Source of the DNA: Branchiostoma floridae
Lineage: Eukaryota; Chordata; Leptocardii; Amphioxiformes; Branchiostomatidae
Reading direction: 5' to 3'
DNA: 64,000 bases
Assembly: GCF_000003815.2 (NCBI RefSeq)
Contig: NC_049982.1
Span: 27,004,269-27,068,268, forward strand
Shown here: positions 443-59,899 of the stretch, in pieces
Position numbering within the stretch: position 1 is the stretch's first letter
Layout: every line of letters starts with the position of its first letter
The notes under the pieces: model-generated
What the model saw: the letters and a program-made list of their open reading frames with translations, nothing else
What the model was told of the DNA's origin: nothing
The model's database searches: none
Position numbers and translations under genes: made by a program

Positions 443-516
443 CGACCACGTTAAAACAGCCTCATTACTCATAATTTGGGTACCTACTGACTGGCACCTG
501 GTGGTTATTATTATAA
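443..516 (+). repeat. SINE 3' tail (same tail as the 5S-derived SINE)
   Basis: The segment runs from CGACCACGTTAA through a TACCTACTG block to GGTGGTTATTATTAT. It matches the 3' part of the 5S-derived SINE at 52972-53238, with the same (TTA)n ending. No head is present, so it is a 5'-truncated copy. Its mirror image is at 51440-51509 in the other arm. Confidence 0.75.
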
Positions 517-818
517 TTTATATACATATTTATATATTTAATTTTCGTTCATTTATTCGTTCAAATGGCTGGCATCACAGACAGCCAAGGCTGTCAAACT
601 CGTCATGACTATTATTTTTATCAAGGGCTAACCTTTAATAATTTGAACACTGTTCAGTAACTGACAGCTATTTGGTCACTAATTTAATATTTGTTTAATA
701 CATTTTATATTATATTTCAGGTATGGATTTAAGTCACGGTGTTTATGTATTAAATTCTGGGTTGACCGGATCTGATTTTGTCATTTGTGTCATCGTTTCC
801 CTTTTTATATGCCTCCAG

Positions 819-3212: not shown

Positions 3213-3674
3213 TTATCCAATAAATATTACTGAGTTCTGCCACAAACCATGTTCTGATTCAAAATCATGGGTAAATTTGGGTAATTCTTGGAAGTGATCG
3301 GTAAACTTCCAGCTAAATGTGGGTAAAGGGGGTAAATATGGCATTGAATATTCTGGTAAATGTTTGTATAAATCCGAGGTAAATATGGGTAAATACAGCG
3401 ATATGAGATATACTCCGCCTGGTAAATGTCGGTAAATGCGCAAAATATATGAGAAATACCTCGTACGGTAAATCTCGGTAAATACATATTTACACGAACC
3501 TGGTAAATGTGGGTAAATCAGGCAAACATTACCCGCTTTACCATGCGGGTAAATGCCTGGTATATTTGCACCTTTACCGGCGGGTAAATGTCGATAAATC
3601 CCGGGTAAATCTAAACTTTACCCGGCTATACATCACATTTACCAATGTGGTAAATTCGACTTTTCATGCAGTGA
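3213..3674. repeat. GGTAAA-rich degenerate short-period repeat (family G), left arm
   Basis: About 450 bp in which GGTAAA (or TTTACC) recurs every 8-20 bp, for example GGTAAATGTGGGTAAA. It ends in TTTCATGCAGTGAT. The same block lies at 48308-48770 (other arm), and a shorter independent copy at 54838-54987 ends in the same TTTCATGCAGTG motif. The constant terminus suggests a bounded element rather than a plain microsatellite. Confidence 0.75.
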
Positions 3675-3749
3675 TTAAAAAAAAAACGGACCGGCTCGGG
3701 ACGCATGACGTCATGGCTCGGCGCATTGGATTTTTTTGTGCCATTATAG

Positions 3750-6740
3750 TCTCTTGAGGGGAACGTCACTTTAGAGGTGTACCAGCAGAAACAACATATC
3801 ACGGGGGGAACTAGCGGGTCTGAACAATGGCATGCAGCGGGGTTTTCATCCTGTCCTACATGTATTTCCTTCTCTATGGAACCTCCTTGATTGAAACAGT
3901 TAGTTTTCTGGTTGTTTTCTTTGAGTGTAAATGCTGGCATAGTCATTTTATTACTTAGTGTGATTATATCACCTCTCCTTCCCTTTCCCCTTTTGCAGGT
4001 GCTATCCAGCAAACAGAAGCAAAACAAGCAAGCACTAAATAAATTTGTAATTTATGTCACCATGGAAGGGAAAAGTTTTTGCAACTGGGTGACAAGTAGT
4101 TTATGATCTGAAAATATGCCTTCCAGAAGTGCCAGACTACCCAGTAGTTTTTACAAACTGGGCTTCAACAAATATGTTCCCTTCTGTGGTTAATGCATAT
4201 TTAATTTTTCAGTAGAAGTACAGAAGCTGGGGCAGTGTCAATTTTTCCATTTTTAGTTTTAGTTTTGACCGTACATTTACTTCAACCAAAGGTGGTCCTG
4301 GGTCAACTTACCCTTTCCTTTCCCTCCCATCTTTAAAGAAGCCATGATCTATCTTTTTTGTATCTAGATGCTAACTAGCAACCACAATGCATGCACTAAT
4401 TGGTGATTAGTGTCATTAGAAGAGAAGAATAGTTGCAATTGGGTGAGAAGTAGTTTATGATCTTATGTAATCCCTTACAGAAAACCAGGGAGTTTTTAAA
4501 CAAAACACCTTGATACCATAAGCATTCAATTTCTGAGCAGACCGACCTAGCCTAAACATTGCAGCAACCATAGGATACATATTTTTTTGATTAGCATGAA
4601 AGTTTATTGGAGTTGGTAAATTGCATACTACTTAACTACTACTGTCAGTGAATAAGTTGCTTAATGACCAACTCTGGTAAGTTAACTTTCTTGAGTTGGA
4701 GAACACGTTATTTGTTTCTCATGATAAACTTTAATCTTTACTATATTTAGTAATACATGTAGTTTTTACTCTAAGGACCTTTTTCTTTCCTTTTCTAATG
4801 GGCTACCCTAGGCCTGTCGCAAGTGCTAACAGGAGGGGTAGTCCCAAGAAAAAAATACTATATATAGAAGTGGTGTAAAAACTTTAAACAGAAAAGGTCG
4901 CAAAAAAACAACGAAAAAACCATGGCCGATTCAACAGCTTAAAAATGACTCCAAAAACTAAAAACTAAGTGTAAGTAGGTATATTTACTTGATACATGAT
5001 AGCCTATTCTTGGCCTGTTTTGTGCATAATTGCCGCTTCTGGGCTAAACAGTCTTCACACATTGGTGTAAAATTTCACACATTGGTGTAAAACTAAAAAC
5101 ATTGTACATGCATCTGTTTTGTTTGCTCTGAGTCCATTGCCTTTTGTGTACTAATTTCCTGGTTTGCTGTTTTCTTCAAGCAGAGGTTTATATGGAGGGT
5201 TTATGAAATGTAACCAAGGACGTCCTTGATTTCACCAAGAAAGTCATCAACCTATAACCTTCTTGATATAGCAACCTCCAGCTTGTCCTGGCTTTGTAAA
5301 TTATCAGGTTCTGTTTTTGTCTGCCAGCAAGTTAAATCGTACCATGGGTGGTGAGCATACCTGAATGTTTAAATTAAACTTCCTGAATATGTAATGTCTT
5401 TTTCAAAGTTCTTGAATGCACTTATTCAGAATCTATCAAGCAGATGAAATGTAATACCTTCATGCATTAAAATCTTGAAAGTACCTGCTGATCGATAGTA
5501 TCCAAAAAACTTTTACAGGACTGGAAGTGCTAAAAAAGTTTTTAATGTTTTTGCCAGTACTTTACAAAATCCGTGTCACAGTTTGCCCTGTCATATATAT
5601 GCAGGTAACGTCATTGACTTGCTTCCAAGAAAATTTGATCTGATGTAACAGTGGGGTTCAAGCGCTGCCAAACTGAACACGCCAACAGCTCTGAGCTTTT
5701 GGCATTGTGGTATGCACGTTGGATTTGTGATCACTGTGCCGGCCCATGTTTGATCCTGGTGTCGGCATGTTGTTTCTTCTGTTACTTACTCCTTTGATTT
5801 GAAATTTTGACCATCATAAGATAAAGACTTGAGTTGCAATGTGATGAAAAAGGCCATGAAGCTGTTATGTTTAATATGAATTAAGGAAACATTAGACAAA
5901 AGTTTGTTCCAGAGAATATTTCCAGGTTCCAAATCCTGTTAATAAAAATAGGGCCAATACAAGCTTAGAACATGGCCATCTTTCCTCAGCCAATCAGGAG
6001 CGAGTATTTCTTGTGACTATATCCACATAGTATGGTGTCCCTAGGGGTAGGGGTGTACTAAGTAACGAATAAATTGACTAAGTTGGAGACGCCCACCATT
6101 CAACTGAATGGTCTCCCTTGGGGTAGGGGTGGCCTAGCTCTAAATGTTATTCAGTAGATTTCTAGCGAGGTCAACGCCCATGAAGCCGGTTCTTTCAAAT
6201 GCAGAGTAACCAATTAACACCAGACCGGTGGCACGCGGGGGCCAGGGAGGAGTGTTTCACACCTATTGTCCGTCGATTACTAGCTGTTAAATACCGTCAA
6301 TACATTACAAAGGCCATCTTTGTGGGGGTTCCTTTAGTTTGCAGCATGTATTTTTGTGAGCTGGTCCCTTTAAATACTGGTAATATATAGAATAGAAGTA
6401 CGGACTGAAGAATCAACTTACTACAGCCGTTGCACATGGGTCTTTAGAAACGTCTTTTTACCTTATTACAAGATCCAAGTTGTGAGTTGTAGAACTACGT
6501 GCTGTTTTTACTATATATTTTACAGAAATAACAACAATGTAAAATGTGACACATGTTACACTAGCCCAAAACTTTACACACATCATTGCAAAATGCATGC
6601 ATGATAGCATGCCATATTATGACCGTGTACTATTTAGTACATCTACTGGCTCAACATAGGTAAGTATACAACTTCTTAGGAAATATGGATACAGTACATT
6701 TGATTATAACAATACAAGTGCTAATACTAACTTACCGGTG
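3750..6740. other. No recognisable gene; includes a possible tRNA-derived SINE piece
   Basis: About 3 kb of AT-rich sequence with only short open frames and no matching exon structure. At 5685-5770 a possible tRNA-derived head is seen: an A-box-like GGCATTGTGGT and a B-box-like GTTTGATCC about 50 bp apart, as in decayed SINEs. A direct repeat of about 50 bp (AACGAATAAATTGACTAAG core) occurs at 6046-6097 and again at 7540-7590. Confidence 0.4.
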
Positions 6741-6749
6741 ACCTCTTTA

Positions 6750-6939
6750 TAGTCTCCAAGCAGACCCTACGGTGCCTTAGAAATAGTATATAAGCTGGCA
6801 AAGGAGTATAGCCGGCCAAAGGGAGATAGCCGGCTAAGGGAGTCAAACGGGCACCTGGTGCCGGTATACCAAGTCCCTGGCCAGCTTTGATACTATAATT
6901 TCTAACTTCTAAGGCACCGTAGGGTCTGCTTGGAGACTA
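6750..6939. mobile_element. 190 bp MITE with ~30 bp TIRs and 9 bp TSD (MULE-like)
   Basis: The ends TAGTCTCCAAGCAGACC and its reverse complement form near-perfect inverted repeats of about 30 bp that continue through a CTACGGTGCCTTAGAA block. Both sides are flanked by ACCTCTTTA (6741-6749 and 6940-6948), a 9 bp target duplication. Known rule: 9 bp duplications are typical of Mutator-like elements. No coding capacity. Related termini (CTCCAAGCAGAGG) occur at 10712-10766 and 13618-13773. Confidence 0.8.
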
Positions 6940-6948
6940 ACCTCTTTA

Positions 6949-9100
6949 TAACGAGGCCATACAGCCGGCTCATCACAAAAGTACCTGTGACTTATGGCGG
7001 AAGAGAAGGGTCTACTGTACTTTTAATTCTACTAAATTCAATAATTCAATAAAATCACATTGATCATTTATATCTGTGTCCATTCTTAGGGCTAACCCAA
7101 GTCACTTCCTCGTCACAATTTTTACACGTTGTGGAGGCTTCTGTAGCTTCTTGACACAAACTTAGTTCGACGTTCCACAGTTGTCGCAACGGGCGCGTAG
7201 CGACCGCTCCATTAGCGCGAGCGCAGCACCATTGAAAGTGTAAAACTTCATCTCTACAGTCCCTCCGCTTTTTGATCATCCAACTTTCAAAGTTAACTAT
7301 ATTCAAGCTGATCGATCTAGACGTACGGAAGAACTCAAAACAGCAACTCAAATGCGCTTGGGTTGAGTGTAGGACATTTACATGAAACTAGATGGCTACA
7401 AGAGGTGCAATTAGCCCGTAACTAGGCTGCCATTGGCTAATTGTCGACGGCGGTCAGTGACCTGATAGCAGTCATCTGATTGGTCCTCGCTAGAAACCGT
7501 CGGAAATCTAGTGCATATCAAATAGTGTACACGGTAGGGGTGTACCAACCAACGAATAAATTGACTAAGTTGGAGACGCCCACCTTTCTCATGCAAATAA
7601 AAGCAATTAAAGAATTAACAAAAAGGGAAACAGCAAATCAACCTATGTTACTGAACATCTTTATTCATAACATAAACAAAGGAAATTCTTACGATCATGA
7701 AAGAAAGTCAGAAAACGAACAAGACAATAATAAAGAGTTTCTTGTAACAGGAAAATGTACAAACAGCGTTACATCAAACTTTCAAAGACATGAAAAATAT
7801 AACCTCCTTGGTTACATCAAGCTAGGGAACAGGCTCCAAGATAGTAAAGAAAAACTAGTAGAGATGCTACATAAAAACATGCGAGTTAAATTGATCAAAA
7901 CGATCAATACTTCCATAAACGAGAAACAAACTAAAAATGCAGGAAGATAATGCATGATGTGGTCTACCAGGAACGGGTCAAACTGGGAACAGGACAGCTC
8001 GTCAGAACGGTTGCTCCAGCAGGGCGAATTAAATGGGGGAGGAGGCAGCGACATCGGCCGGTCTGTCTGGCAAGAACTGGTTAGGATCAAAACTACAGAA
8101 CAGTTTGGCAGAGATGCCACCATGCTGCAGCAAAACGTTTTACACCAGCTCGAGCTGGAACTCAGACATGTCGGGTTGTGTACGGAACTCGCCTGAACAT
8201 ACTGTGAAAACGGCTGAACATACTCGAGAAAATGGGCCTCCAAGACATGCCACGTCCTGCTCATTTGAGGTCAGGTTGGGAACTGGGAATGATCTGACAT
8301 GCACCCACAGAACAATGGCATTGTGGTGCAAAAAAGTGTTGTAAAACCAGACATGAATTTCACACAAGCCTCATGAGGAAAGGTGTGAGGCGCCATCACC
8401 AGGGTCATGAATGGGAAATAGGAGAAGAATATAGCCTGTCTGTTCACTTGCTAGGAAAACAAACTGCATGTTTCTAATGACTAAAAAAGTGTATTTTGCT
8501 TCGGAAAGATGGCCATGTTCTAAGTCAGATAGATCCTGGTAGTGGCNNNNNNNNNNNNNNNNNNNNNNNNNNNNNNNNNNNNNNNNNNNNNNNNNNNNNN
8601 NNNNNNNNNNNNNNNNNNNNNNNNNNNNNNNNNNNNNNNNNNNNNNTGATCTATCTATTACAAGGAGTATCCTCTTTAACCAATCCTGTAATTATGCGCT
8701 ACTGTAATGCAGGGTCAAACTAGGTCAGCTATTGTCTTTAAAATGTGCAAAGTAATTGTAGCTGAACCAACTGTCCCACAGGGAATATCTTGAGACCCGG
8801 CTACCCCAATGCTCAGAGATTAGCTGTAAAGCTGAGGTCCTTGGGTCCACTATTACTGGTTTAAGAAATTTCAGAGGAATTACAGAAGCCTGAAAATTCA
8901 CCGGGATGGATTACATGATTCAAAATGGTGAAACCAAATGGGTACAATATCATCAACGTTGCATCCAACCCTGAGATAAACACTTCTTTGAGAAGTTGGA
9001 TAACTTGGAAGTTGAAAAAAAATTAATTCAATTCAATTTTAACTTGACAATCATTACTTTGACCCCCATGTACAGCCAAACCTTCATCTGTTGTCCTCAC
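6949..9100. other. No recognised gene; long overlapping open frames of unknown meaning
   Basis: The plus strand has a 156-codon frame at 7480-7950 and the minus strand a 150-codon frame at 7812-8264. They overlap and neither resembles a known family. The plus-strand translation is Lys/Asn-rich, as expected from AT-rich non-coding DNA. A 100 bp gap lies at 8547-8646. I see no splice-consistent exon or RNA gene. Confidence 0.3.
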
Positions 9101-9104
9101 AATT

Positions 9105-9590
9105 ATTGAATGAATGAAAGACCTTTATTGTACACATTCATGCCTCAACAGGCTAGGTACAGGTCACTGATAACAGACATGACAGACATATGCATAGACA
9201 ACAAGATACAATTTAACTATTTGAAAGTGCTAAACTAACAGGATGGTTGACATCTTCTCGCTTCTTTGTACAGGTGTAGATATAAGAACATATAATGTTT
9301 GATATACAGCCGGTTTATCTAGGCGCATCAAAAATAGAAATGTATCCGTTGCATTAAGATGTTCAAAATATGGGAACTCTTTTCTGATACATTCATAAAG
9401 CACAATTCGTTCCTTATGGTAAAATTTACAGTGTACGATAAAATGCTGTTCATCTTCTACCTGTTGTAGTTCACAAAATTGGCAGACTCTATGCTGCAGA
9501 GGAGTGCGGTTGTGCCTTCCAGTTTCAATATGTAACTTGTGACAACTAATCAGGAGTTGTATGTATATTGAAGCGACCAAGGTTGTACTA
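9105..9590 (-). mobile_element. 3' end of a non-LTR retrotransposon (CR1/L2-like)
   Basis: Minus-strand frame 9580-9230 (116 codons) has the C-terminal zinc-binding region typical of LINE reverse transcriptases: CQFC followed about 20 residues later by HFIVHC, preceded by HRVC-type spacing. It is followed by a short 3' UTR with AATAAAGGTCTTT and an ATTCATTCA-type tail at 9105-9120, which marks the 3' end of insertion. The element is 5' truncated; the polymerase core is absent. Clade assignment is tentative. Confidence 0.7.
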
Positions 9591-9616
9591 TAAAATCACC
9601 CAATAAATTCAGCTAA

Positions 9617-10135
9617 GGCCACAGCAAGTAAATTTTATGGATGACATCCTCTGCAGACTGCAGAAATAGTGCGATAGGGCGAAAAAAAAACAAGATGGGT
9701 GCATAATAGGCACCATAAAGTTGTGATGACTGTTGTAAAAAGAATTAAAGGGACAAAACATTGTATCAGAGCCAGCAATGCATTCATTCCTGTATTTAAA
9801 ACATGTACTGGTGTGGTAGAAGTGACACTAGTGTCACAGTGGTAGACTGCCATCACCAACAAAGTTGGTAACCACACTCAAAGCTTCCATATTGCTGTCA
9901 CTTTTACAACTATCCAATAAGTTTCGTTTCTACAACTACAGTCCTAGGTACCTCGCAAGTGTCACTTCTACAAGTACAATTATTAGGCCACAACACAATA
10001 TATTTGCTCATAGTGGTACTGTATCATAATGTTGACCATGCCTGCAGAAGAAAAAAAAATCTTGTTTTTTTTCTGAAATCAGGCGAAAATTAATGCGCGC
10101 GTAGATGGCATCCATAAAATTTACCTGCTGTGGCC
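9617..10135. mobile_element. 519 bp Harbinger-type MITE, TSD TAA, with empty sites in paralogues
   Basis: Terminal inverted repeats GGCCACAGCAAGTAAATTTT / AAAATTTACCTGCTGTGGCC extend through ATGGATGxCATC. The flanks are TAA (9614-9616 and 10136-10138). The tandem copies at 11519-11540 and 12944-12965 read AGCTAACGTAAAC with a single TAA, so the pre-insertion site is preserved and the 3 bp duplication is proven. A 3 bp T-W-A target is the PIF/Harbinger rule. A second copy is at 32400-32816. Confidence 0.88.
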
Positions 10136-10711
10136 TAACGTAAACTACCAGCCCTCAGTCTGGTCCCAACCACCGTGGTGTTCACATCAGTGGAGGCAGG
10201 CTAATACAGATTAGCAAGTATTGGATCGCGGAGTTACTCTTCAGTTTTGAAATGTACATAAGCCAGTAGTCTTGAACAGATAAGGATGGCGACACACAAT
10301 TCAGTGTAGCTTTACAAGTCAGCTTACAAACAATATAAAGCATAGCTGGCCATGGTCTGCCTGGAAGTGTGTCTCAATCTGACCCAGATACAACTTGTTG
10401 TACAGTCCTACAGAGCCCCAGTCTACACTGGCAAGTTGCAAAATATAAGTAGTTCAAACTTGACAGGGGCTGGTCCTTACTGAGAGACAGTTCAAACAAA
10501 GCCTTCATACAACATAATGCCCTAGCTCTTGTGTGAAAACAAAATGTCTTCCTGTCGTCTGCTGTAATACCAATCCTTTGTCCTTGGTTACAGACGGGTA
10601 GAGATCTCCCACTGGGTCTAAGCCATTTATGATGCTGGGAGTATGCGATGAGTCAATTTAGCAACTGGCATCCTGGTAGGAGATAGTCTTTTATGGTCGA
10701 TTGCCCTGGGA

Positions 10712-10766
10712 GTAGACTAAAAAAACGTTTAAAAAAAGCCGGAGCCTAACCTCTGCTTGGAGAGTA
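10712..10766. mobile_element. Single-end remnant of the CTCCAAGCAGAGG MITE
   Basis: One arm ending GAGCCTAACCTCTGCTTGG-AGAGTA. Diverged arms of the same family lie at 11407-11490 and 12831-12915 (CTTCAAGCAAAGGTTAGG). Confidence 0.6.
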
Positions 10767-13617
10767 CTTGTTTACACCAAGGTGTCCCTTTTTACCAGGC
10801 ATATTGAAGCCTAGTCAGATTAGAATTTATGAGCATGATTGCTCAAGCTCAGATTCAAATGGCCTATTAATCTTTTGTGACCGCTTTTCAGGGTGATTTT
10901 GTGCAGAGGTGACTCAAAGTTGAAGCCTTTAGTGCATCCTCAAGATTGTTTAATTCAAGTTGACTTTGAGAGTGATTCAAATAAAGCTTAATTGTTTAAA
11001 TGTTTTAAAACATTGTTGATGGAAACCCAAAATTTGTACATGGCCCTCCCTCAAGCCAAAAAATTTTCTCCTTGGACCAAGGAGGGACACAGTGGCCACT
11101 AGTTTTATGGCATGAACGTTTCTTTTTGATGTGCACAGCTCTCCTTCCTTTGCCAGTATACTGCAGACTCGGGAAGAACAACTTATAAACTGCAAGGTTC
11201 CTTTCATTGAAACAAGGAGGTTTTATCAATGATTTATCAATGATTAAACCTCCTTGATTCAAGACAAATACATCCAAAGTCAGCGATTTTTTTTATTTTA
11301 TTACAACCCTACTGTTGATAAAAATCAGTCTTTTTAAAAGAATTTTCACATTTAAAAGAAACGGACCTTCAAGCGCGTGGTGTAGTTCGTCAGAACCCCC
11401 AACCCCCTACTCTTCAAGCAAAGGTTAGGATTCGGCTGTTTTTCAATGTTTTTTTAGCCGTTTTCATCAGACTTTCTATTTTGTATTTTATCTTTATCTT
11501 TACTAGTATGGCCGTCACCCAATAAATTCAGCTAACGTAAACTACCAGCCCTCAGTCTGGTCCCAACAACCGTGGTGTTCACATCAGTGGAGGCAGGCTA
11601 ATACAGATTAGCAAGTACTCGTATTGGATCGCGGAGTTACTCTTCAGTTTTGAAATGCACATAAGCCAGTAGTCTTGAACAGGTAAGGAATTGAAGTATG
11701 GCGACACACAATTCAGTGTAGCTTTACAAGTCAGCTTACAAACAATATAAAGCATAGCTGGCCATGGTCTGCCTGGAAGTGTGTCTCAATCTGACCCAGA
11801 TACAACTTGTTGTACAGTCCTACAGAGCCCCAGTCTACACTGGCAAGTTGCAAAATATAAGTAGTTCAAACTTGACAGGGGCTGGTCCTTACTGAGAGAC
11901 AGTTCAAACAAGGCCTTCATACAACATAATGCCCTTAGGCTCTTGTGTGAAAACAAAATGTCTTNNNNNNNNNNNNNNNNNNNNNNNNNNNNNNNNNNNN
12001 NNNNNNNNNNNNNNNNNNNNNNNNNNNNNNNNNNNNNNNNNNNNNNNNNNNNNNNNNNNNNNNNNNNNNNNNNNNNNNNNNNNNNNNNNNNNNNNNNNNN
12101 NNNNNNNNNNNNNNNNNNNNNNNNNNNNNNNNNNNNNNNNNNNNNNNNNNNNNNNNNNNNNNNNNNNNNNNNNNNNNNNNNNNNNNNNNNNNNNNNNNNN
12201 NNNNNNNNNNNNNNNNNNNNNNNNNNNNNNNNNNNNNNNNNNNNNNNNNNNNNNNNNNNNNNNNNNNNNNNNNNNNNNNNNNNNNNNNNNNNNNNNNNNN
12301 NNNNNNNNNNNNNNNNNNNNNNNNNNNNNNNNNNNNNNNCTCAAAGTTGAAGCCTTTAGTGCATCCTCAAGATTGTTAATTCAAAGTTGATTTTTGAGAG
12401 TGATTCAAATAAAGCTTAATTGTTTAAATGTTTTAAAACATTGTTGAAGGAAACCCAAAATTTGTACATGGCCCTCCCTCAAGCCAAAAAATTTTCTCCT
12501 TGGACCAAGGAGGGACACAGTGGCCACTAGTTTTATGGCATGAACGTTTCTTTTTGATGTGCACAGCTCTCCTTCCTTTGCCAGTATACTGCAGACTCGG
12601 GAAGAACAACTTATAAACTGCAAGGTTCCTTTCATTGAAACAAGGAGGTTTTATCAATGATTTCTCAATGATTAAACCTCCTTGATTCAAATACATCCAA
12701 AGTCAGCGATTTTTTTAATTTTATTACAACCCTACTGTTGATAAAAATCAGTCTTTTAAAAAGAATTTTCACATTTAAAAGAAACGGACCTTCAAGCGCG
12801 TGGTGTAGTTCGTCAGAACCCCCAACCCCCTACTCTTCAAGCAAAGGTTAGGATTCGGCTGTTTTTCAATGTTTTTTTAGCCGTTTTCATCAGACTTTCT
12901 ATTTTGTATTTTATCTTTATCTTTACTAGTATGGCCGTCACCCAATAAATTCAGCTAACGTAAACTACCAGCCCTCAGTCTGGTCCCAACAACCGTGGTG
13001 TTCACATCAGTGGAGGCAGGCTAATACAGATTAGCAAGTACTCGTATTGGATCGCGGAGTTACTCTTCAGTTTTGAAATGCACATAAGCCAGTAGTCTTG
13101 AACAGGTAAGGAATTGAAGTATGGCGACACACAATTCAGTGTAGCTTTACAAGTCAGCTTACAAACAATATAAAGCATAGCTGGCCATGGTCTGCCTGGA
13201 AGTGTGTCTCAATCTGACCCAGATACAACTTGTTGTACAGTCCTACAGAGCCCCAGTCTACACTGGCAAGTTGCAAAATATAAGTAGTTCAAACTTGACA
13301 GGGGCTGGTCCTTACTGAGAGACAGTTCAAACAAGGCCTTCATACAACATAATGCCCTTAGGCTCTTGTGTGAAAACAAAATGTCTTCTTGTTGTCTGCT
13401 GTAATACCAATCCTTTGTTCTTGGTACCCAGGCGGGTAGAGATCTCCCACTGGGTCAAAGCCATTTATGATGCTGGGAGTATGCGATGAGTCAATTTAGC
13501 AACTGGCATCCTGGTAGGAGATAGTCTTTTATGGTCGATTGCCCTGGGAGTAGCTGTTTGGACTCCTGAAGCCTGTAGACCCAAGGACAATTATGTCCCC
13601 ACAAGTCAGAATGCCAT

Positions 13618-13773
13618 TGTTTACTACTCTCCAAGCAGAGGTTAGGCTCCGGTTGTTTTTTTAACGTTTTTTTAGTCGTTTTTATCGGGCTTTCTATTTT
13701 TCTTATTAGATCTTGCTGTGTCAAAACGGGATCACAACAAAACAATGACAAAATAGAAAGCCCGATAAAAACG
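13618..13773. mobile_element. Palindromic MITE, truncated by an assembly gap
   Basis: Begins TACTCTCCAAGCAGAGG. The segment CGTTTTTATCGGGCTTTC is followed about 70 bp later by its inverse GAAAGCCCGATAAAAACG, immediately before the gap at 13774. This is the centre of a near-perfect palindrome, which probably caused the assembly break. Confidence 0.75.
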
Positions 13774-14156
13774 NNNNNNNNNNNNNNNNNNNNNNNNNNN
13801 NNNNNNNNNNNNNNNNNNNNNNNNNNNNNNNNNNNNNNNNNNNNNNNNNNNNNNNNNNNNNNNNNNNNNNNNNNNNNNNNNNNNNNNNNNNNNNNNNNNN
13901 NNNNNNNNNNNNNNNNNNNNNNNNNNNNNNNNNNNNNNNNNNNNNNNNNNNNNNNNNNNNNNNNNNNNNNNNNNNNNNNNNNNNNNNNNNNNNNNNNNNN
14001 NNNNNNNNNNNNNNNNNNNNNNNNNNNNNNNNNNNNNNNNNNNNNNNNNNNNNNNNNNNNNNNNNNNNNNNNNNNNNNNNNNNNNNNNNNNNNNNNNNNN
14101 NNNNNNNNNNNNNNNNNNNNNNNNNNNNNNNNNNNNNNNNNNNNNNNNNNNNNNNN

Positions 14157-15880
14157 AATATGTGACAATGTGTGATTTTTTTTCGTGACTTTTTAAATGA
14201 ATGACATTTAATTGTTGGGCTTTTGCGTACTTTTTTCAAAGACTAAAAAGTAAATCTATCCTTTTGCTGCAAGCTCAGAACCTGAAGGCTTGTGGTTTCA
14301 AGTTAACACTCCTTGTTGGTGTAGAAGGTTTATATGAGATCATAAACTATTTCTCACCCAGTTGCAACTCTATTTCACTTCTCTATAGTGTCTGCATTAC
14401 AAATTAGTGCATCTATTGTGGTTGCTGGATAACATCAAGGAACAAAGAGATAATCATTAAAAGATAAATGGGGAGGTAATTATCACACTTGGGTGATAAA
14501 AAGAGAAGTGGCTTCCAAAGACCAAGGGAACAATGAAGGAAAGGCCTGGCATACAACGACGAAGGTGTACAACGAAGTCATATGTTTGCAGTCGTATATT
14601 ATTTCTCTGCATGCAAAAGATATACAACAGATCATAGTTAGTAAGGTCACATACAACATAACAGATCCAGGATAGACATACTCCTGCATGCACAGTAGTA
14701 AGTCTGCAATCCTCCTAGCTTAATTCTTCACCCCTGCTTAATTCTTCACCACACACTAAGAATGTTTATTTAGGGCCAGGAGGGGCGAGATCACAGGCGG
14801 TTTTTGCCCCCCCTTAACGTTTTTGCCCCCCCCCCCCCCCCNNNNNNNNNNNNNNNNNNNNNNNNNNNNNNNNNNNNNNNNNNNNNNNNNNNNNNNNNNN
14901 NNNNNNNNNNNNNNNNNNNNNNNNNNNNNNNNNNNNNNNNNNNNNNNNNNNNNNNNNNNNNNNNNNNNNNNNNNNNNNNNNNNNNNNNNNNNNNNNNNNN
15001 NNNNNNNNNNNNNNNNNNNNNNNNNNNNNNNNNNNNNNNNNNNNNNNNNNNNNNNNNNNNNNNNNNNNNNNNNNNNNNNNNNNNNNNNNNNNNNNNNNNN
15101 NNNNNNNNNNNNNNNNNNNNNNNNNNNNNNNNNNNNNNNNNNNNNNNNNNNNNNNNNNNNNNNNNNNNNNNNNNNNNNNNNNNNNNNNNNNNNNNNNNNN
15201 NNNNNNNNNNNNNNNNNNNNNNNNNNNNNNNNNNNNNNNNNNNNTCGATATTATACATCTATGAAACGGAACACGTCAGTTATATGTTTTCAATTTGTCA
15301 CAGTATTTTCTCTCTTGTGCAGGAAACATTTCCAAAGCACTAACAAAAACACAAGTGAATAATAGTTTCTCATTATAAACACTATCTCTATATATATGTA
15401 TACGCGCAAATTCATATACTGTAACATTGTACCTGTTGCGAAATGCTACAAAGTACCAGTCCTAAGAAACACGGGTAAACGCAGCAGTTCCCAAATACTA
15501 GAAAAACAGTCATAATGGAGGTGCATATAACAAAATGTGCGATATTCTAATGAATACCTTATCTTCATAACTAATAAAGACATTTCATACTTCTTTTGTG
15601 GTCATTGTAGAGGCTTCATATTGGAGATATATTGGTTGCTTGAGGACAGGGGAATACAATCTTATGTCGAGACTCACTTAGTATAATATTGCAATAATGG
15701 GAATACAAGGGACCCAACTCTCCTTGTCCGAAAAAAACTTCAACTGTCTTAAATATCAACATGTAATGACGTTGATATTAATACTATGGATGGAGTTAGG
15801 TATCAGACTCGTGTACTTATATCATTCTGAAACTGCATTTTGTGATTTATACCAATCAACTTCTAAAATGTTAGGTAAAC
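14157..15880. other. No recognised feature
   Basis: AT-rich sequence broken by a 403 bp gap at 14842-15244, whose left edge is a run of 16 C, a likely cause of the break. No exon, RNA gene or bounded repeat could be supported. Confidence 0.3.
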
Positions 15881-23953: not shown

Positions 23954-26824
23954 GTGCTGTACACCAACACAGACCAATTCCCAAACAAGAGGGAGGAACT
24001 CAGGTTCATGGTGGCCAGTGATCCAGTGGACTTGATCGCCCTGACCGAGGTTATCCCCAAGGCACAGATAAACCCGTTAAAGATGTGTACACTAGATATG
24101 GAAGGCTACGAGGCCTTTACAAACTTCAACCCGGATGAAAGAAACCTTGGGAAGAGTGGCACAAGGGGTATTGTCATTTTTGTAAAGAAGTCACTGAACT
24201 TGAGTGTACAGGAACTGGACTTTAGTGCAGCCGGATTTCATGAGCAGTTATTTCTGAAATGTGAACTAGGCAACAAAGAATCACTCATTGTGGGGTGTAT
24301 ATATAGAAGCCCAACCTCTGACCCAACAGACAGTACGACCAAATTATGTGAACTTTTGTCAAATGTTTGTAAAGAGAAGGCTAAGCACATGGTAATAATG
24401 GGAGACTTTAATCTAAAGGAAATTGACTGGGAAGGGAGGACTACAGTTGATGGCGCACACCCCCATTGCCAGCATTTCCTGGATTGTCTTGATGACAATT
24501 TTCTAACCCAGCATGTTGAAGAACCCACCCGACACAGGGTCAACCAGACCCCATCCGTACTTGACTTAATCATCACAAATGAACAGCATACAGTTGGGGA
24601 ACTGCAGTACCTGCCAGGGCTAGGGAAAGGTGACCACTGCTGTCTGAACTTCGTCATAAACTGCAGTAGGGAGAAACCTCCTAGACCGGAGGCAAGGCGT
24701 AATTATAACAAGGGCAATTACCAGAAGGCCAAAGAGGACCTGGGTGGGATTGACTGGGATACTGAGATAAGTCACATGGAGGTCTCTCAGGCATGGACAA
24801 GGTTCTGCGAACTACTCAATAAGGTGGTGGATGAGTGTATCCCATTGACTAGAGGAGTCCAAAGACCTAATAAGCTTTACTTGAACAAGCAAGCAATGGA
24901 AGTAAAAAACAAGAAAAGGAAGATGTGGTCAAAATGGAAAAGCTCTGGTAGTCTTGCAGACTTCAGAAGGTATGCAGCAGTAAGAAACTCACTTAGAAGT
25001 CTAACACGACAGCTGTGCAGTGAATACGAGCACAGGCTGGTGAGGGATCTTAAGGACAATCCCAAAAACTTCTGGAGGTACACGAAGTCCCGTCTCAGTA
25101 CAAGGCCCAAAATAGGTAGTCTGGTCAAACCAGATGGTTCAATGGCACTGACAGACTTAGACAAAGCGGAGGTCCTAAACAACTTCTTTGCTAGTGTATT
25201 CACGGACGAGAATACATCTAGCATACCCAGAGCTAACGCCAAAACAGTGACTTCAGTTCTTGACAATTTCGAGATAAGTAGGGAAACTGTAGAAAGGAAG
25301 TTATCAGAACTCAACCCAACAAAGTCAGCTGGACCAGACGGTCTTCACTCAAGACTTCTGAAGGAACTCGCAAGTGAGCTGTCGTACCCAGTATCAGTTA
25401 TTTTCAAGAAGTCGCTGGAGGCGGGATGCGTACCAGCCGACTGGAAAACAGCACATATAACTCCGATCCACAAGAAGGGTAGCAGACAAGACCCAGGAAA
25501 CTACAGACCTGTAAGCTTAACCTCCGTGGTTGTCAAGACACTTGAGTCCATCATTAGAGATGTACTCGTCGACCATCTTATGGCAAACGAGTTATTTACA
25601 GACGCTCAACATGGGTTCGTACCCAAAAGATCTTGTACCACTCAGCTACTGGTAGTCATGAACGATTGGTCACAGTGTCTAGAGAGGGGGGAACCAGTGG
25701 ACAGCATCTACTTAGACTTCAAAAAAGCTTTTGATTCAGTTCCCCACAAGAGGTTACTCGTCAAGCTGCACTCATATGGGATAAGGGGCCATACACTTAA
25801 GTGGATACAGAACTTTCTCAGCAACAGGAGGCAGAAAGTAGTTATCAATGGAGCGCACTCCTCCTGGCGTAACGTCAAGAGTGGAATCCCGCAGGGAAGT
25901 GTTCTGGGTCCTACGTTATTTGTTGTTTTTATAAACGACCTGCCGGAGGTTGTGACCAGTGCAGTGAAGATCTTTGCTGACGATAGCAAAATCTACAGAC
26001 CGATCCTATGCAAGGAGGATCAGGAAGCGCTTCAGCGTGACCTCCAAGCTGTGGAAAAGTGGTCGGAGGTGTGGCAACTCCCCTTCAACGCTGGGAAATG
26101 CAAAGTACTCCACTTGGGAAGAGGCAACCAAAGAGCAGAGTACAGACTGGGTGGGCTAATTCTGGAAGAAACCAAAGTCGAGAAAGACCTCGGGGTGTCT
26201 GTCGACGAGCAGTTAAAGTTCCACGTTAACACCACAGTCTCAGCGCAAAAGGCAAACCAAATATTAGGCTTGGTAAAAAGAACCTTCAGTAACTTGGATG
26301 AAGTAACAGTGCCCCTCCTCTACAAATCGATGGTTCGCCCCCATTTAGAGTATGCGAACGCTGTTTGGGGGCCGCATTTCAAAGTCGACCAGAACACTGT
26401 GGAAAAAGTACAACGTAGAGCAACAAGGCTGGTCCCAACACTCAAGTCCTTTCCGTATAGTGTTAGGCTGGAGAGTTTGAAGCTACCATCACTCCACTAT
26501 AGAAGAGCCAGAGGGGATATGATACAAGTCTTTAAGTTCCTCACAGGAAGGGAGAGGGTTAGTGCACAGAGTTTCTTCACCGAGAGTCAACATCAGTCAA
26601 CTAGAGGGCATCGCTTCAAACTTACGGTGCCACTGGCAAAGTCCTTGGTACGTCGCCAGTCGTTTGCGGTTCGAGTAGTACAAAATTGGAACTCGCTGCC
26701 GGCTGAGGTCGTAGAGGCAGAGTCTGTTAACGCGTTTAAAACGAGGTTGGACTTATGTTGGAGTAAGAAGAGATACCACGATCGTCAGGAGGGTGACTAC
26801 ACAGGCGCAGCCTACTTCACCTAG
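23954..26824 (+). CDS. LINE ORF2: AP-like endonuclease plus reverse transcriptase
   Basis: 956 codons, intact. The N-terminal endonuclease (EEP fold) shows the catalytic Glu in LTEV near residue 31, MGDFN near 148 and GKGDHC near 224-229. Reverse transcriptase blocks follow: KSAGPDGLHS near 457, NYRPVSLTS near 515, LDFKKAFDSVPH near 587, SGIPQGSVLGP near 643 and the catalytic FADDSK near 674 (Ser replaces the common Thr). The C-terminal part has the thumb and HLEYANAVWGPH-type region usual in CR1-like proteins. It nicks target DNA and primes reverse transcription there. The frame is open upstream of 23954 back to the ORF1 stop, so the true start could be earlier. Confidence 0.92.
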   Translation: MLYTNTDQFPNKREELRFMVASDPVDLIALTEVIPKAQINPLKMCTLDMEGYEAFTNFNPDERNLGKSGTRGIVIFVKKSLNLSVQELDFSAAGFHEQLFLKCELGNKESLIVGCIYRSPTSDPTDSTTKLCELLSNVCKEKAKHMVIMGDFNLKEIDWEGRTTVDGAHPHCQHFLDCLDDNFLTQHVEEPTRHRVNQTPSVLDLIITNEQHTVGELQYLPGLGKGDHCCLNFVINCSREKPPRPEARRNYNKGNYQKAKEDLGGIDWDTEISHMEVSQAWTRFCELLNKVVDECIPLTRGVQRPNKLYLNKQAMEVKNKKRKMWSKWKSSGSLADFRRYAAVRNSLRSLTRQLCSEYEHRLVRDLKDNPKNFWRYTKSRLSTRPKIGSLVKPDGSMALTDLDKAEVLNNFFASVFTDENTSSIPRANAKTVTSVLDNFEISRETVERKLSELNPTKSAGPDGLHSRLLKELASELSYPVSVIFKKSLEAGCVPADWKTAHITPIHKKGSRQDPGNYRPVSLTSVVVKTLESIIRDVLVDHLMANELFTDAQHGFVPKRSCTTQLLVVMNDWSQCLERGEPVDSIYLDFKKAFDSVPHKRLLVKLHSYGIRGHTLKWIQNFLSNRRQKVVINGAHSSWRNVKSGIPQGSVLGPTLFVVFINDLPEVVTSAVKIFADDSKIYRPILCKEDQEALQRDLQAVEKWSEVWQLPFNAGKCKVLHLGRGNQRAEYRLGGLILEETKVEKDLGVSVDEQLKFHVNTTVSAQKANQILGLVKRTFSNLDEVTVPLLYKSMVRPHLEYANAVWGPHFKVDQNTVEKVQRRATRLVPTLKSFPYSVRLESLKLPSLHYRRARGDMIQVFKFLTGRERVSAQSFFTESQHQSTRGHRFKLTVPLAKSLVRRQSFAVRVVQNWNSLPAEVVEAESVNAFKTRLDLCWSKKRYHDRQEGDYTGAAYFT

Positions 26825-30000: not shown

Positions 30001-33000
30001 CTGTACTGTTGAGATGACCAACATCCACCAGCCATGTAAGGAGAAACTCAATGGTCCTTTTACGTACAACAGGTTTACACACAGAACAAGCATTAAGCAG
30101 CCTTAGCCTGTAGCTAACTCAAAGGTTATCCAGCTGCAGTATTCATTGTTAAATGTCATTTACAAATTCTCCACATCATTTAGTCAAGTGCCTGATTGCC
30201 CAAAAGTCACAACAGAATGTCCGGTTGTGTTGTTGTTTGTAGCCTAGTTTTACCACTTAAGGTACTAAATCTAGCCCATTGTGCATCTATCAGGGCTGTC
30301 TCCATCTTTAGATTTTTCTATCCCACTTATTGGGAAATGCTTTTTTGGTTTTGTCGTAAGCTTAGGAAAGAATGTTTTTATTAATTTCAGGTCTTAAAGT
30401 TCAGACTTGTTGGAAAGACAGACAAAATTTTTTTCCAGCCCATGAAGCAAATTTCTGTCCCTTCATCAATTTCTGTCCCAGTAGGAAGGGACAGGTCCTG
30501 GAGTTTGGCATAGATCTATCCTAAGCATTTCCGTCATCCTTGATTTACTGTATGCCTAACGAGTATGTTGTGTTACAGATGAGGTGGCAGTGGTGGACGA
30601 GATCCAGATGATAAAGGACCCCCAGCGAGGGTGGGCGTGGACCCGCGCCCTGCTGGGTCTGTGTGCCGAGGAGATCCACCTGTGTGGGGAGCCTGCAGCC
30701 ATCGATCTGGTCACAGAGATGATGCTGTCTACAGGGGAGGAGTTGGAGGTACAGTAATGGTCATTACTATTATTATTATTGGTGGAGCCTGCAGCCATCG
30801 ATCTGGTCACAGAGTTGATGCTGTCTACAGGGGAGGAGTTGGAGGTACAGTAATGGTCATTACTATTATTATTATTGGTGGAGCCTGCAGCCATCGATCT
30901 GGTCACAGAGTTGATGCTGTCTACAGGGGAGGAGGTGGAGGTACACTAATGGTCATTACTATTATTATTATTGGTGGAGCCTGCAGCCATCGATCTGGTC
31001 ACAGAGTTGATGCTGTCTACAGGGGAGGAGGTGGAGGTACACTAATGGTCATTACTATTATTATTGGTGGAGCCTGCAGCCATCGATCTGGTCACAGAGT
31101 TGATGCTGTCTACAGGGGAGGAGGTGGAGGTACACTAATGGTCATTACTATTATTATTATTGGTGGAGCCTGCAGCCATCGATCTGGTCACAGAGTTGAT
31201 GCTGTCTACAGGGGAGGAGGTGGAGGTACAGTAATGGTCATTACTATTATTATTGGTGGAGCCTGCAGCCATCGATCTGGTCACAGAGTTGATGCTGTCT
31301 ACAGGGGAGGAGGTGGAGGTAATGGTCAGTACTATTATTATTGGTGGAGCCTGCAGCCATCGATCTGGTCACAGAGCTGATGCTGTCTACAGGAGAGGAG
31401 GTGGAGGTAATGGTCATTACTATTATTATTATTGGTGGAGCCTGCAGCCATCGATCTGGTCACAGAGTTGATGCTGTCTACAGGGGAGGAGGTGGAGGTA
31501 CAGTAATGGTCATTACTATTATTATTGGTGGAGCCTGCAGCCATCGATCTGGTCACAGAGTTGATGCTGTCTACAGGGGAGGAGGTGGAGGTACACTAAT
31601 GGTCATTACTATTATTATTATTGGTGGAGCCTGCAGCCATCGATCTGGTCACAGAGTTGATGCTGTCTACAGGGGAGGAGGTGGAGGTACAGTAATGGTC
31701 ATTACTATTATTATTGGTGGAGCCTGCAGCCATCGATCTGGTCACAGAGTTGATGCTGTCTACAGGGGAGGAGGTGGAGGTAATGGGCATGTACTAACAA
31801 TATCATTACTAAGGTTCCATATCTTAGTGCTAGAATCTGTACAGAGTTTTTGGTTTGTTTGTTAGCGGCCCTGCCTCTGGAACTAGAAGTCGTGAGCTCT
31901 ATCCTTGTTGTATCACTTACTCGTCATCCCTAGGATAAGAAGTCAGTCTGTGGTCCACTGTACATTGTAAATTGGAGGATTTCCCCTGTACAATGAACCT
32001 GTAAATACATAGCGTACCTACCGTCTGTCTTTTCTGTCACGATCAGTGGAAGAATTAGCTCTTCAGTGAGCTAAATTAGAACGATATATCACTTTCTCCT
32101 TTTTGTCACAGCCTCCTTGTATATTGTTCTTCCCATCTTCTAGGTCAGAAGATACAAAAGGCTGACAGGTCTGACCTACCTGAAGGAGCCGCTGGGTTCC
32201 TTAAACAACCTGAGACCAGGGGACGCCATCGTCTGCTTCAGCAAGGCAGACATCTTCCAGCTGAGCAGGCAGATAGAGGCCATGGGGAAGGTAGGTCATG
32301 GGCAATTTCAGTCATCTCTACAATGATTATTGTTCTTGAATACACATATGATGTACACAATGTAAAATGATTCTTACAAAAGATAAACCTTGTAACATCT
32401 GGATTCTACCTAAAGCACAAAATAGACACCATAAACCTATGACAAGAATGGAAGTGACAAAACATGGTACAAATGTAGCACAGCCAACAAACCATTCATT
32501 CCTGTATTCAAGAAGTGCACAGGTGTATCGGAAGAGACACTAGTGTGGCACACTTGTATCACTTACCAAGTTGGTAACCACACCCATGGCTTCTATATTG
32601 GTGCCACTTTTACAACTATCCAACTAGTTTCACTTCTACACCAGGTCCTACAGTCATGGCTACCTCGCTAGTGTCACTTTTTTAGTACAATCAATACTTT
32701 CTCATCAAGTTGACCATCTCTGACGAAGAAATATGTTCCTGTTTTTTTTAAAACAAAAATCAAGCAAAAATTGATAAGTGTGCTGACGTCATCCATGAAA
32801 TTTACTTGCTGTGGCCTTATATTTAGCTACATATCCCTAGTGAGCAGGGATATGCTTAAAACAAACATTCTTTTTTTGTTTTCTTGGTTTTGTTGTCAGA
32901 GTAACTGTTGTTGTATCATGTCTTGGAGTGATCGTCTGAATGCCTCCATGCTATTACCATTTCAGGAGTGTGCAGTTATATACGGCAGCCTCCCCCCAGG

Positions 33001-53299: not shown

Positions 53300-54850
53300 C
53301 CTGAGCCTTATACCAGGGTCCATCCTGACAATGTAATACATGTACCCCTGTATAAGGCCTTATGTCAGGGTCCATCCTGACAATGCAATACATGTACCCC
53401 TGTATAAGGCCTTATATCAGGGTCCATCCTGACAATGTAATACATGTACATTTTGTACCCCTGTATAAGGCCTTATATCAGGGTCCATCCTGACAATGCA
53501 ATACATGTACCCCTGTATAACGCCTTATATCAGGGTCCATCCTGACAATGTAATACATGTACCCCTGTATAAGGCCTTATATCAGGGTCCATCCTGACAA
53601 TGTAATACATGTACCCCTGTATAAGGCCTTATATCAGGGTCCATCCTGACAATGTAATACTGTAAATGCAGAAATGTTCGCGGTGGATTAATGTTCGCGG
53701 TTTTCGCGGCGACCACTTTACCGCGAACTTAAATCCACCGCGAACATTTTTCTGTAAAGGTATTAGATCGCAGTCGATGGTGTTACCGCGAAATTAAATC
53801 CACCGTGTAATACATGTACATTTTGTACCCCTGTATAAGGCCTTATATCAGGGTCCATCCTGACAATGTAATACATGTACCCCTGTATAACGCCTTATAT
53901 CAGGGTCCATCCTGACAATGTAATACATGTACCCCTGTATAACGCCTTATATCAGGGTCCATCCTGACAATTTAATAGATGTACCCCTGTATAACGCCTT
54001 ATATCAGGGTCCATCCTGACAATGCAATACATGTACCCCTGTATAAGGCCTTATATCAGGGTCCATCCTGACAAATGCAATACATGTACCCCTGTATAAG
54101 GCCTTATATCAGGGTCCATCCTGACAATGCAATACATGTACCCCTGTATAAGGCCTTATATCAGGGTCCATCCTGACAATATAATAGATGTACCCCTGTA
54201 TAACGCCTTATATCAGTGTCCATCCTGACAATGCAATACATGTACCCCTGTATAAGGCCTTATATCAGGGTCCATCCTGACAATGCAATACATGTACCCC
54301 TGTATAAGGCCTTATATCAGGGTCCATCCTGACAATGCAATACATGTACCCCTGTATAAGGCCTTATATCAGGGTCCATCCTGACAATGTAATACATGTA
54401 CCCCTGTATAACGCCTTATATCAGGGTCCATCCTGACAATGTAATACATGTACCCCTGTATAAGGCCTTATATCAGGGTCCATCCTGACAATGTAATACA
54501 TGTACCCCTGTATAAGGCCTTATATCAGGGTCCATCCTGACAATGTAATAGATGTACCCCTGTATAACGCCTTATATCAGGGTCCATCCTGACAATGTAA
54601 TAGATGTACCCCTGTATAACGCCTTATATCAGGGTCCATCCTGACAATGCAATACATGTACCCCTGTATAAGGCCTTATATCAGGGTCCATCCTGACAAT
54701 GCAATACATGTACCCCTGTATAACGCCTTATACCAGGGTCCATCCTGACAATGTAATAGATGTATCCCTGTATAAGGCCCTATATCAGGGTCCATCCCTG
54801 ACAATGCAATACATGTACCCTTGTATAAGGCCTTATACCAGGGTGCATTA
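53300..54850 (+). repeat. 52 bp tandem array, about 28 copies
   Basis: Unit CCTTATATCAGGGTCCATCC-TGACAATGTAATACATGTAC-CCCTGTATAAGG. Variants (GTAATA/GCAATA, CATG/GATG, AAGG/AACG) recur in groups, so higher-order copying took place. Two units have an extra 12 bp (ATTTTGTACCCC region). Interrupted once by a MITE at 53660-53805. Confidence 0.95.
53660..53805. mobile_element. Truncated CTGTAAATGCA MITE nested in the 52 bp array
   Basis: Begins TACTGTAAATGCAG as at 29505 and follows that copy through TTCGCGGTGGATTAATG to an AAATTAAATCCACCG end; the last ~55 bp and the right TIR are missing. The array resumes at TGTAATACATG. Confidence 0.8.
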
Positions 54851-57853: not shown

Positions 57854-59444
57854 CTACTTATCATCAATTGTTGGTGCCTTGGGTGTGTTCAGAACACTGC
57901 TGGAAGTGGGCGTATCAGGGTTCTTAGGTGACGGCAATATGCCGCTTAGAGTCATGTTAGATATACCGGAGAGATTGCTTGTGCTGCCCCGCTCAGACAA
58001 CTGCGGTGACTGCTGTTGGTACTGCTGTGACTGCAGCCGATACTGTGGCGACTGCTGGCGGTGGTAGGTCTGCTGGTACTGCTGTGACTGCTGCTGGTAG
58101 TGCTGCTGATACAGTGGCGGTTCTTCTTGATACTGCGGTTGCAGCTGTTGGTACTGCTGTAGATGCTGCTGCTTGTACTGAGGCTGCAGGGGAGCCTGGC
58201 GGTACTGATCCACGTACTGGGGGGTTGCAGACGACCAAACAGAACTGGCTGGCGCCTGGTGCCTCCACATGTGAGGTGGTGGCTGGTACTGCTCTGAAGG
58301 TGTAATAACAGTCGGAGGTGCAGAGTTTGGTCTTACAGGTCTGATAGCAGTAGGTGCGAGGAACGATGGAGCAGGAGCAGCACATTCTTTACCACCATCG
58401 GAAGAGGAAGAGTCGTTATCCATGTCATTCTTGCGAAGAATGTCCCAAAAAGCTGCCTTGGTCACTCTGTACCTGTCCTTGGGCATGGTGAGTAGTGAAT
58501 CCCTCACGAAGTTGGCAAAGTTAGCTCTCCTGCTGAGGGGTGCAGGCTCAACCAACTGCTTAAGAAGTTGACCAGACTGACGCAGGTTCTCCTGGAGGGT
58601 CTGCATACATGGAGTATCCACTGAGGTATCATCCTGCTTCCGCTTCTTACTCTTCTTGGTGGTGGTGGTGGTGGTGTTGGTGTCTCCCGAAGTGGGAGGG
58701 GTCTCCTCGTCCTCCTCCATTTCTACACGAGCAGCTTGGGCAGCCGCTGCTTCTGCCTGTGCCAAGGACTTACTCCCCTGTCCGGCGAGGTGTTCTTTCA
58801 CCTGCATAAATTGCAATGCATTATCAATAAGAAAACAGAACAAAGTGACATGTCTGGAATAAACATGAATGCAATAAACGTAGTCGTAAGAAAATAGCAG
58901 TGATATTCATGCTTACACTTCTCAATGGCTGTCCCACGTGTCGGACCAGTGGCCGCAAGAAGTCACAACTTGTGAAAATCCATGTTTCTCTCTCTGTGAG
59001 CTTCCTTGCCGCATCCCCGCTCTTCTTCTTGTGGAGCCTTGTGAAAATGTCCTTTATAGATCTCCACCAGCCTCTTAAGCAGATTCCTGTCTTGTCCAAC
59101 TCTTTGGCCTTGTCGTTCCACAGTGCGTCCTTCAGATCCGTGCGCTTATAGCTGATGAGTTTTCTGTTCCAAAGGATCTCGTTCTCTCGGATCCATTCCA
59201 CCAAGGCCATCTCTGTCTGACCATCCAGAGAAAAGCTGTTCTTTTTCGCTCTTGTTTTTTTGGGCGCGGACACCGCTTGAGCGTCGTCTGAACCAGAGGG
59301 GTCGGACAACACTGGAGTGTTGTCTGGAGCTGGGTCGGACATAGCTGGAGTGTCGTCTGGAGCTGGGTCGGACACAACTGGAGTGTCGTCTGGAGCTGGG
59401 TCGGACACAACTGGAGTGTCGTCTGGAGCTGGGTCGGACACCAC
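57854..59444 (-). CDS. Harbinger MADF/Myb-SANT-like partner protein
   Basis: Exons 59444-58917 and 58801-57854 join in phase 0 across a 115 bp intron (donor GTAAGC, acceptor ATGCAG), giving about 491 residues. The N-terminus has four SDPAPDDTPVV-type repeats. The MADF domain follows at about residues 75-170: EMALVEWIRENEILWN, LRGWWRSIKDIFTRLHKKK. Exon 2 holds a basic stretch KKSKKRKQ (likely NLS), a BESS-like helix FANFVRDSLLTMPKDRY, and a Gln/Tyr-rich tail (QQYQQQSQQYQQ). In Harbinger transposons this protein binds the TIRs and recruits the transposase. The start is uncertain: the frame is open upstream of 59444 with GRGRGSSRPPAGG-like sequence to a TGA near 59520, without an ATG. Confidence 0.85.
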
Positions 59445-59899
59445 TGGAGCGTCGTTACAGCCACCAGCAGGCGGCCTAGAGGAGCCACGGCCACGGCCAG
59501 AGCCGGCATGTCAACATGAAAATCTGCACTGGTAATGAAAAGAAGGCTGGCTGTACCTGCATTTATACTCACCTGAAAAACGCGTGGAATGCAATTAACG
59601 CCAGGTGCGTCAGGCATGCGATAGACAGTCGTTGTGTGCGTCAGGAATGCGAGAAGCAAACGCAACTCAATTGCAGCTATTCGCGGCAAAGGTGTTGCGT
59701 CCTTCATATGCAAATCACGCGCACCTCAGTCGGAATGGAGTCGCTGAAGTCGTAACTCATGCGCCATTTGGGCAAGATGTATAATCTAATTAATACCACA
59801 AAAAATAAAAATGTTGGGCGTTCGGCTGCGTATTGACAGAATTTCATTCGGAACTCACGCGCACTTGAAAATATACGCAGGTGTAAACCCACCTTCACA

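What the first reader, a model, noticed from the sequence alone, without database searches (positions are those of the whole stretch)
30686..31783. A minisatellite has amplified the SUPV3L1 exon 5 splice donor 12 times
Each 88-96 bp unit holds the end of a helicase exon, a usable 5' splice site and a bit of intron. The transcript therefore presents 12 tandem donors after one acceptor. Use of any donor but the first would add a TAA stop in the helicase frame, so the array could act as a decoy or as a length-variable regulator of productive splicing. Units 2-12 encode the more ancestral-looking peptide, while unit 1, the true exon end, has changed (EMM, EEL), which suggests gene conversion or unequal exchange around the junction.
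Basis: partly seen in the sequence, partly recalled or inferred. Interest (0 to 1): 0.72.

Follow-up and report, generated by a model that had tools for sequence, protein, structure and literature searches.

The report
Splice-donor minisatellite in amphioxus SUPV3L1
A short stretch covering the end of one exon of a mitochondrial helicase gene has been copied twelve times in a row in a lancelet-like genome; this is a further case of the known amphioxus "mirage" repeats, in which the real splice site most likely stays the one touching the exon and the other copies are spliced away with the intron.

Summary
The array is real: 12 head-to-tail units (88-96 bp; the last runs into unique intron) at 30688-31782, each holding 61 nt of SUPV3L1 exon end, a GAG|GTA donor and (units 1-11) 27-35 nt of intron. 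The gene is identified by PDB and Pfam matches. Any donor but the first would include an in-frame TAA three codons on, 87-1022 nt before the junction, so by sequence only donor 1 is productive.

It is not a new kind of object. Tandem repeats across exon-intron boundaries are described in amphioxus as "mirages" (Adh3, globins, PGBD5, TnC; PMC3087553, PMC3902484), and published Adh3 data and globin RT-PCR suggest that they do not disturb splicing. This genome's Adh3 gene carries such arrays, including 10 tandem donors and 7 tandem acceptors. A 250 kb sample of the genome gave two more probable cases.

Best explanation: a neutral minisatellite grown by slippage and unequal exchange; the exon-proximal donor is chosen by exon definition, the rest are intron. 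The decoy/regulator idea is untested and has no support here. One odd detail holds up: the intronic copies, not the working exon, keep the peptide shared with human SUPV3L1.

The parts
30579..30748 (+). SUPV3L1 coding exon (DEXQc_Suv3 part; 170 nt); its last 61 nt are the exonic part of unit 1
30688..31782 (+). whole minisatellite array, 12 units across the exon-intron boundary
30688..30783 (+). unit 1, exon-proximal; inferred authentic donor GAG|GTACAGTAA at 30749; reads EMM / EELE
30784..30879 (+). unit 2; donor 30845 GTACAGTAA; reads ELM / EELE
30880..31164 (+). units 3-5; donors 30941, 31037, 31130 (GTACACTAA, weakest predicted U1 pairing); read ELM / EEVE
31165..31257 (+). unit 6; donor 31226 (GTACAGTAA)
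31258..31436 (+). units 7-8; donors 31319, 31407 (GTAATGG, 5 nt shorter)
31437..31718 (+). units 9-11; donors 31498, 31591, 31687
31719..31782 (+). unit 12, distal boundary; donor 31780 (GTAATGG), followed by unique intron
30755..30757 (+). in-frame TAA included if any donor 2-12 is used
32144..32290 (+). next SUPV3L1 exon (phase 0 join, E|VRRYKRLT), acceptor ttcttctag

Best explanation
A mirage minisatellite: a short duplication spanning the exon-intron boundary of SUPV3L1, expanded to 12 units by slippage and unequal exchange. Because the exon-proximal donor (30749) is the one that gives a short exon (170 nt) and the intact helicase frame, exon definition keeps it in use, the other 11 copies are removed inside the intron, and rare use of them yields a stop that nonsense-mediated decay would clear. 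Shown here: anatomy, frame consequence, same class in Adh3 of this genome. Inferred: donor choice by exon definition, decay, neutrality.
For: 12 of 12 units keep the donor and 1 of 12 donors gives an open helicase frame. Adh3 of this genome (L027) has a donor array (10 donors; the one next to the homologous frame is the first) and an acceptor array (7 acceptors; the last): both times the authentic site is the exon-proximal one, which fits exon definition and not 'first transcribed wins'. Two probable further donor arrays, L008 (minus strand, 50 bp x 26) and L021 (136 bp x 2.8), have the same layout. In 4 of the 5 donor arrays read (SUPV3L1, Adh3 33 bp, L008, L021) an in-frame stop lies between the first and second donor; in the fifth (Adh3 29 bp) there is none, but the 29 nt would shift the frame. 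Donor sequence does not single out unit 1: units 1, 2, 6, 9, 11 share it, and predicted accessibility does not either. Published Adh3 data and globin RT-PCR suggest regular splicing (PMC3087553).
Against: No RNA was examined; the authentic site is inferred from frame and homology. An array whose far copy is used would look like an exonic repeat, so the exon-proximal rule is partly built in. The stop between donors is not general (absent in the Adh3 29 bp array). The true donor has the lowest score of the gene's six scored donors on a recalled weight matrix (3.24 against 6.39-10.06), and donors of units 7, 8 and 12 score higher on it (6.32), so competition is thinkable. The exonic copies, not the exon, keep the human-like peptide, the reverse of Adh3 and L021, where the copies are the diverged ones; plain drift does not predict this in particular.
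Confidence: 0.82

Rival explanations
1. Regulator: the 12 donors compete for U1, and copy number sets how much SUPV3L1 mRNA is productive (unproductive splicing with decay).
For: 12 of 12 units keep a donor; donors 2-12 each lead to an in-frame stop 87-1022 nt before the junction; the authentic donor is weak on a recalled standard matrix, is equalled by units 2, 6, 9, 11 and exceeded by 7, 8, 12 there.
Against: Published Adh3 data and globin RT-PCR suggest regular splicing of other mirages. Donors are kept simply because units are near-identical. Use of donors 3-12 needs exons of 362-1201 nt (whose lengths start one base late).
Confidence: 0.07
2. Assembly expansion: the genome has fewer units and the assembler repeated them.
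For: Tandem arrays are prone to it (recalled); the Adh3 donor array of this assembly runs into an N; PMC3087553 reports one globin mirage that looked wrongly assembled in the draft.
Against: Units 1, 7 and 8 carry private changes and there are three donor classes; no N in the array; both edges join unique sequence cleanly.
Confidence: 0.05
3. Intron gain in progress: a copy is recruited as part of a new exon, as proposed for amphioxus globins.
For: AG|GT in 12 of 12 units, the proto-splice-site model set out in PMC3087553 (section 16).
Against: No good acceptor within the unit was seen by eye (not scored); each extension beyond donor 1 meets the TAA; the human-like coding order is complete without the array.
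Confidence: 0.06

Closest known systems
Mirage minisatellites of amphioxus (Adh3; globins BflGb6 and BflGb9; TnC)
   Same: Tandem repeats across an exon-intron boundary, AG/GT in many copies, concerted evolution with differing boundary units (PMC3087553 section 16; TnC from a passage of PMC3902484); Adh3 of this genome read here, authentic sites at the exon edge.
   Different: Another gene (SUPV3L1) and 12 units; here the copies keep the human-like peptide and the exon end is derived.
Lancelet PGBD5 splice-site tandem repeats (60 and 108 bp)
   Same: Tandem repeats over 5' and 3' splice sites (PMC3902484 passage).
   Different: Described there as imperfect; the 108 bp one is a triplication.
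Intron gain by tandem genomic duplication (AGGT model)
   Same: Tandem duplication at a coding sequence with splice signals (PMC4974935, listing with the start of its abstract only).
   Different: There a new intron is reported; here an existing intron is lengthened.

Membership tests
Amphioxus mirage minisatellite | tandem array whose unit spans an exon-intron boundary | tested here: met
   61 nt exon + 27-35 nt intron per unit in units 1-11; exon shown by homology
Amphioxus mirage minisatellite | authentic junction at the edge of the array, copies intronic | tested here: met
   only donor 30749 gives an open helicase frame; not tested on RNA
Amphioxus mirage minisatellite | genome is a cephalochordate with mirages in Adh3 | tested here: met
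   Adh3 exons in L027 carry arrays of 26, 29, 59 and 33 bp units at splice junctions; not compared letter by letter with the published arrays, and no tool names the species
Amphioxus mirage minisatellite | length instability between alleles or somatic cells | not testable with these tools
   one haplotype held; no reads
Amphioxus mirage minisatellite | regular splicing of the mRNA | not testable with these tools
   no RNA data
Regulated unproductive splicing switch | alternative junctions in RNA | not testable with these tools
   only the frame consequence was tested

The most novel reading that the evidence does not exclude
Mirages are a pervasive feature of this genome (hundreds to thousands of them), at donors and acceptors alike, leaving the working site at the exon-proximal edge: a natural, allelic series of near-identical competing splice sites that tests exon definition and intron gain. 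Sample: 2 probable cases in 250 kb, 8 per Mb, Poisson 95% interval 1-29 per Mb, or about 500-14,800 per 513 Mb.
Probability: 0.4. Interest if true: 0.62.

Novelty: new member of a known kind. Interest (0 to 1): 0.4.

Why it matters
It adds a conserved mitochondrial helicase gene to the short list of amphioxus genes with splice-site minisatellites and suggests that the phenomenon is common. Arrays of near-identical donors and acceptors are natural experiments on a long-standing question: how the spliceosome picks one of several equal sites. The Adh3 pair (first donor, last acceptor, by frame and homology) favours nearness to the exon over order of transcription.

Tried and rejected
Donor choice by sequence: rejected, five units share the authentic donor. 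Donor choice by local RNA folding: unit 1 is not the most accessible (P unpaired -1..+3 is 0.11 for unit 1, 0.163 for unit 11, 0.136 for unit 6). Two-quartet G-run motifs occur in 12 of 12 units, noted only. Loss of the exonic GAG|GTGGAG site in units 1-2 (GTG to TTG) might be selected, but it is one site. Other arrays of the window: none of the other six could be tied to a validated exon boundary; the loose rule also flagged 39426, 52754, 53305 and 59299, which I judged by eye and cannot exclude. In the 250 kb sample there are 16 arrays, of which I judged 2 to be mirages; the rule also flagged L010, L011, L014, L016 and L019. Of the 14 not counted, flanks were read for five (L010 1817, L011, L014, L021 9832, L030); the other nine were judged on their unit or the line alone, so 2 of 16 may be low. 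L008 was missed at the first look and found on the second; neither L008 nor L021 has a family match over a curated cut-off, and the L021 peptide had no PDB match at E 0.1. A gene-targeted survey of helicase exons failed: 112 matches were listed but no loci could be cut. Paper searches for amphioxus with SUPV3L1, for VNTR with splice donor and for duplicated sites with exon definition found 0 papers in this library. The look for globin mirages did not complete.

Full report
Observation. The window holds a tandem array at 30688-31782 (TRF period 96, 11.7 copies, 95% matches, score 1945). Cutting at GGAGCCTGCAGCC gives 12 units. The first 61 nt of each are the end of a coding exon, then a donor GAG|GTA and, in units 1-11, 27-35 nt of intron; the twelfth unit turns into unique intron after its donor. 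The exon (30579-30748) and the next (32144-32290) match human SUPV3L1 (E 1.3e-47), and seven window exons joined with approximate edges match at E 2e-151; Pfam gives DEXQc_Suv3. The array sequence has one place in the 513 Mb assembly. Exon '5' is probably six or more, and unit 2 shares EEL with unit 1.

Frame. Using donor 1 joins E to VRRYKRLT, as in human (E-VRDYKRLT). For donors 2 to 12 the first stop is the same TAA at 30755-30757, 87 to 1022 nt before the junction. Exon lengths would be 266 to 1201 nt (one search counts from 30580 and is one short). That such mRNAs decay is established knowledge (recalled), not tested.

Donor strength. On a recalled weight matrix donor 1 scores 3.24, the lowest of six donors scored in the gene (others 6.39-10.06, taken at splice sites that I placed by eye); units 7, 8 and 12 score 6.32. 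On U1 duplex energy donor 1 has -8.5 through a bulged C at +4, within the range of the gene's other five, -4.9 to -11.8. Bulged registers are reported by Roca et al. 2012, seen here only as cited in PMC4383343 (two passages). Units 1, 2, 6, 9, 11 share this donor; units 3, 4, 5, 10 (GTACACTAA, -5.7) and 7, 8, 12 (GTAATGG, -6.7) differ. Sequence alone therefore does not pick unit 1; nor does predicted accessibility.

History of the array. Human reads ELMYTTGEEVE. Units 3-12 read ELM...EEVE, unit 2 ELM...EELE, unit 1 EMM...EELE. So the working exon end carries two changes at places where units 3-12 agree with human; taking human as ancestral rests on one outgroup. Unit 2 is the closest relative of unit 1, as expected if it was copied from it last. 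Units 5-7 and 10-12 show the same order of donor variants, as unequal exchange of several units would leave. The change GTG to TTG in units 1 and 2 also removes an exonic GAG|GTGGAG, which scores 3.89 on the matrix; one site is no proof of selection.

What it is. Tandem repeats across exon-intron boundaries are called mirages in amphioxus: Adh3 in two species, globins BflGb6 and BflGb9, other loci (PMC3087553, section 16 read), and TnC and PGBD5 (PMC3902484, one passage). To test whether this genome belongs there, E. coli FrmA was used to find the class III Adh gene. Its 10 kb region L027 has arrays at splice junctions: 26 bp units before one exon, 29 bp units from its donor, 59 bp units with 7 acceptors whose last is authentic by frame and homology, and 33 bp units with 10 donors whose first is authentic, each followed by an in-frame TGA. 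That last array meets an N, so its length is uncertain. The genome is thus very probably a lancelet, although no tool names it.

How common. Twenty-five 10 kb stretches at set positions of C1-C8 (250 kb) hold 16 arrays by the rule. Two look like mirages: L021 7106-7510, 136 bp x 2.8, exon end ...SSICVKGSCK|GTGAG, in a probable ADAMTS-like gene (Adt-1 7.3e-6 and TSP1_ADAMTS 0.0011, both under their cut-offs); and L008 6075-7455 on the minus strand, 50 bp x 26, exon ...KPPKERVRSVP(R)|GTAAGG, with 27 donor-like sites of which 16 keep AG|GTAAG, and no family match. Both are calls by eye, the second found on a second look; nine of the 14 others were judged without reading their flanks. 2 in 250 kb is 8 per Mb, interval 1-29. 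The window itself is left out of this count.

Mechanism. In the four donor arrays SUPV3L1, Adh3 33 bp, L008 and L021 the first donor is the one next to the open frame, and a stop lies in frame before the second donor. In a fifth, the Adh3 29 bp array, the first donor again ends the homologous frame, but there is no stop before the second donor, only a shift of frame by 29 nt. In the one acceptor array read in detail (Adh3 59 bp) the last acceptor is authentic. The common rule is nearness to the exon, as exon definition (recalled) predicts; order of transcription would favour the first site in both. The caution is ascertainment: arrays that settled otherwise would appear as exonic repeats.

Verdict. 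A sound observation, correctly read as a minisatellite over a donor; a new member of a known kind. The regulatory reading is possible but has no evidence here and has published results on sister cases against it.

Noticed in passing
L027:5027-6376 (Adh3 region, own genome C6:27449001-27459000): Four separate minisatellites at consecutive splice junctions of one gene, including 10 tandem donors and 7 tandem acceptors.
   Followed up: yes
L008:6075-7455 (minus strand): 50 bp x 26 array amplifying a donor CAG|GTAAGG after a charged coding-like exon; 16 of 27 sites keep AG|GTAAG.
   Followed up: partly
L021:7106-7510: 136 bp x 2.8 array at a donor of an ADAMTS-like gene.
   Followed up: partly
window 53305-54844: 52 bp x 29 minisatellite, no validated exon boundary.
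   Followed up: partly
window 59299-59455: 33 bp x 4.8 array inside a long open frame on the minus strand (PAPDDTPVVSD repeats), probably a coding repeat.
   Followed up: no
window 24500-26821: 774-codon open frame that looks like a non-LTR reverse transcriptase, upstream of the SUPV3L1 exons found (by eye).
   Followed up: no
window 30753-30768 and the copies that hold it: AGTAATGGTCATTACT, a near-perfect palindrome just after the donor in the GTACAGTAATGG units, a possible driver of slippage.
   Followed up: no
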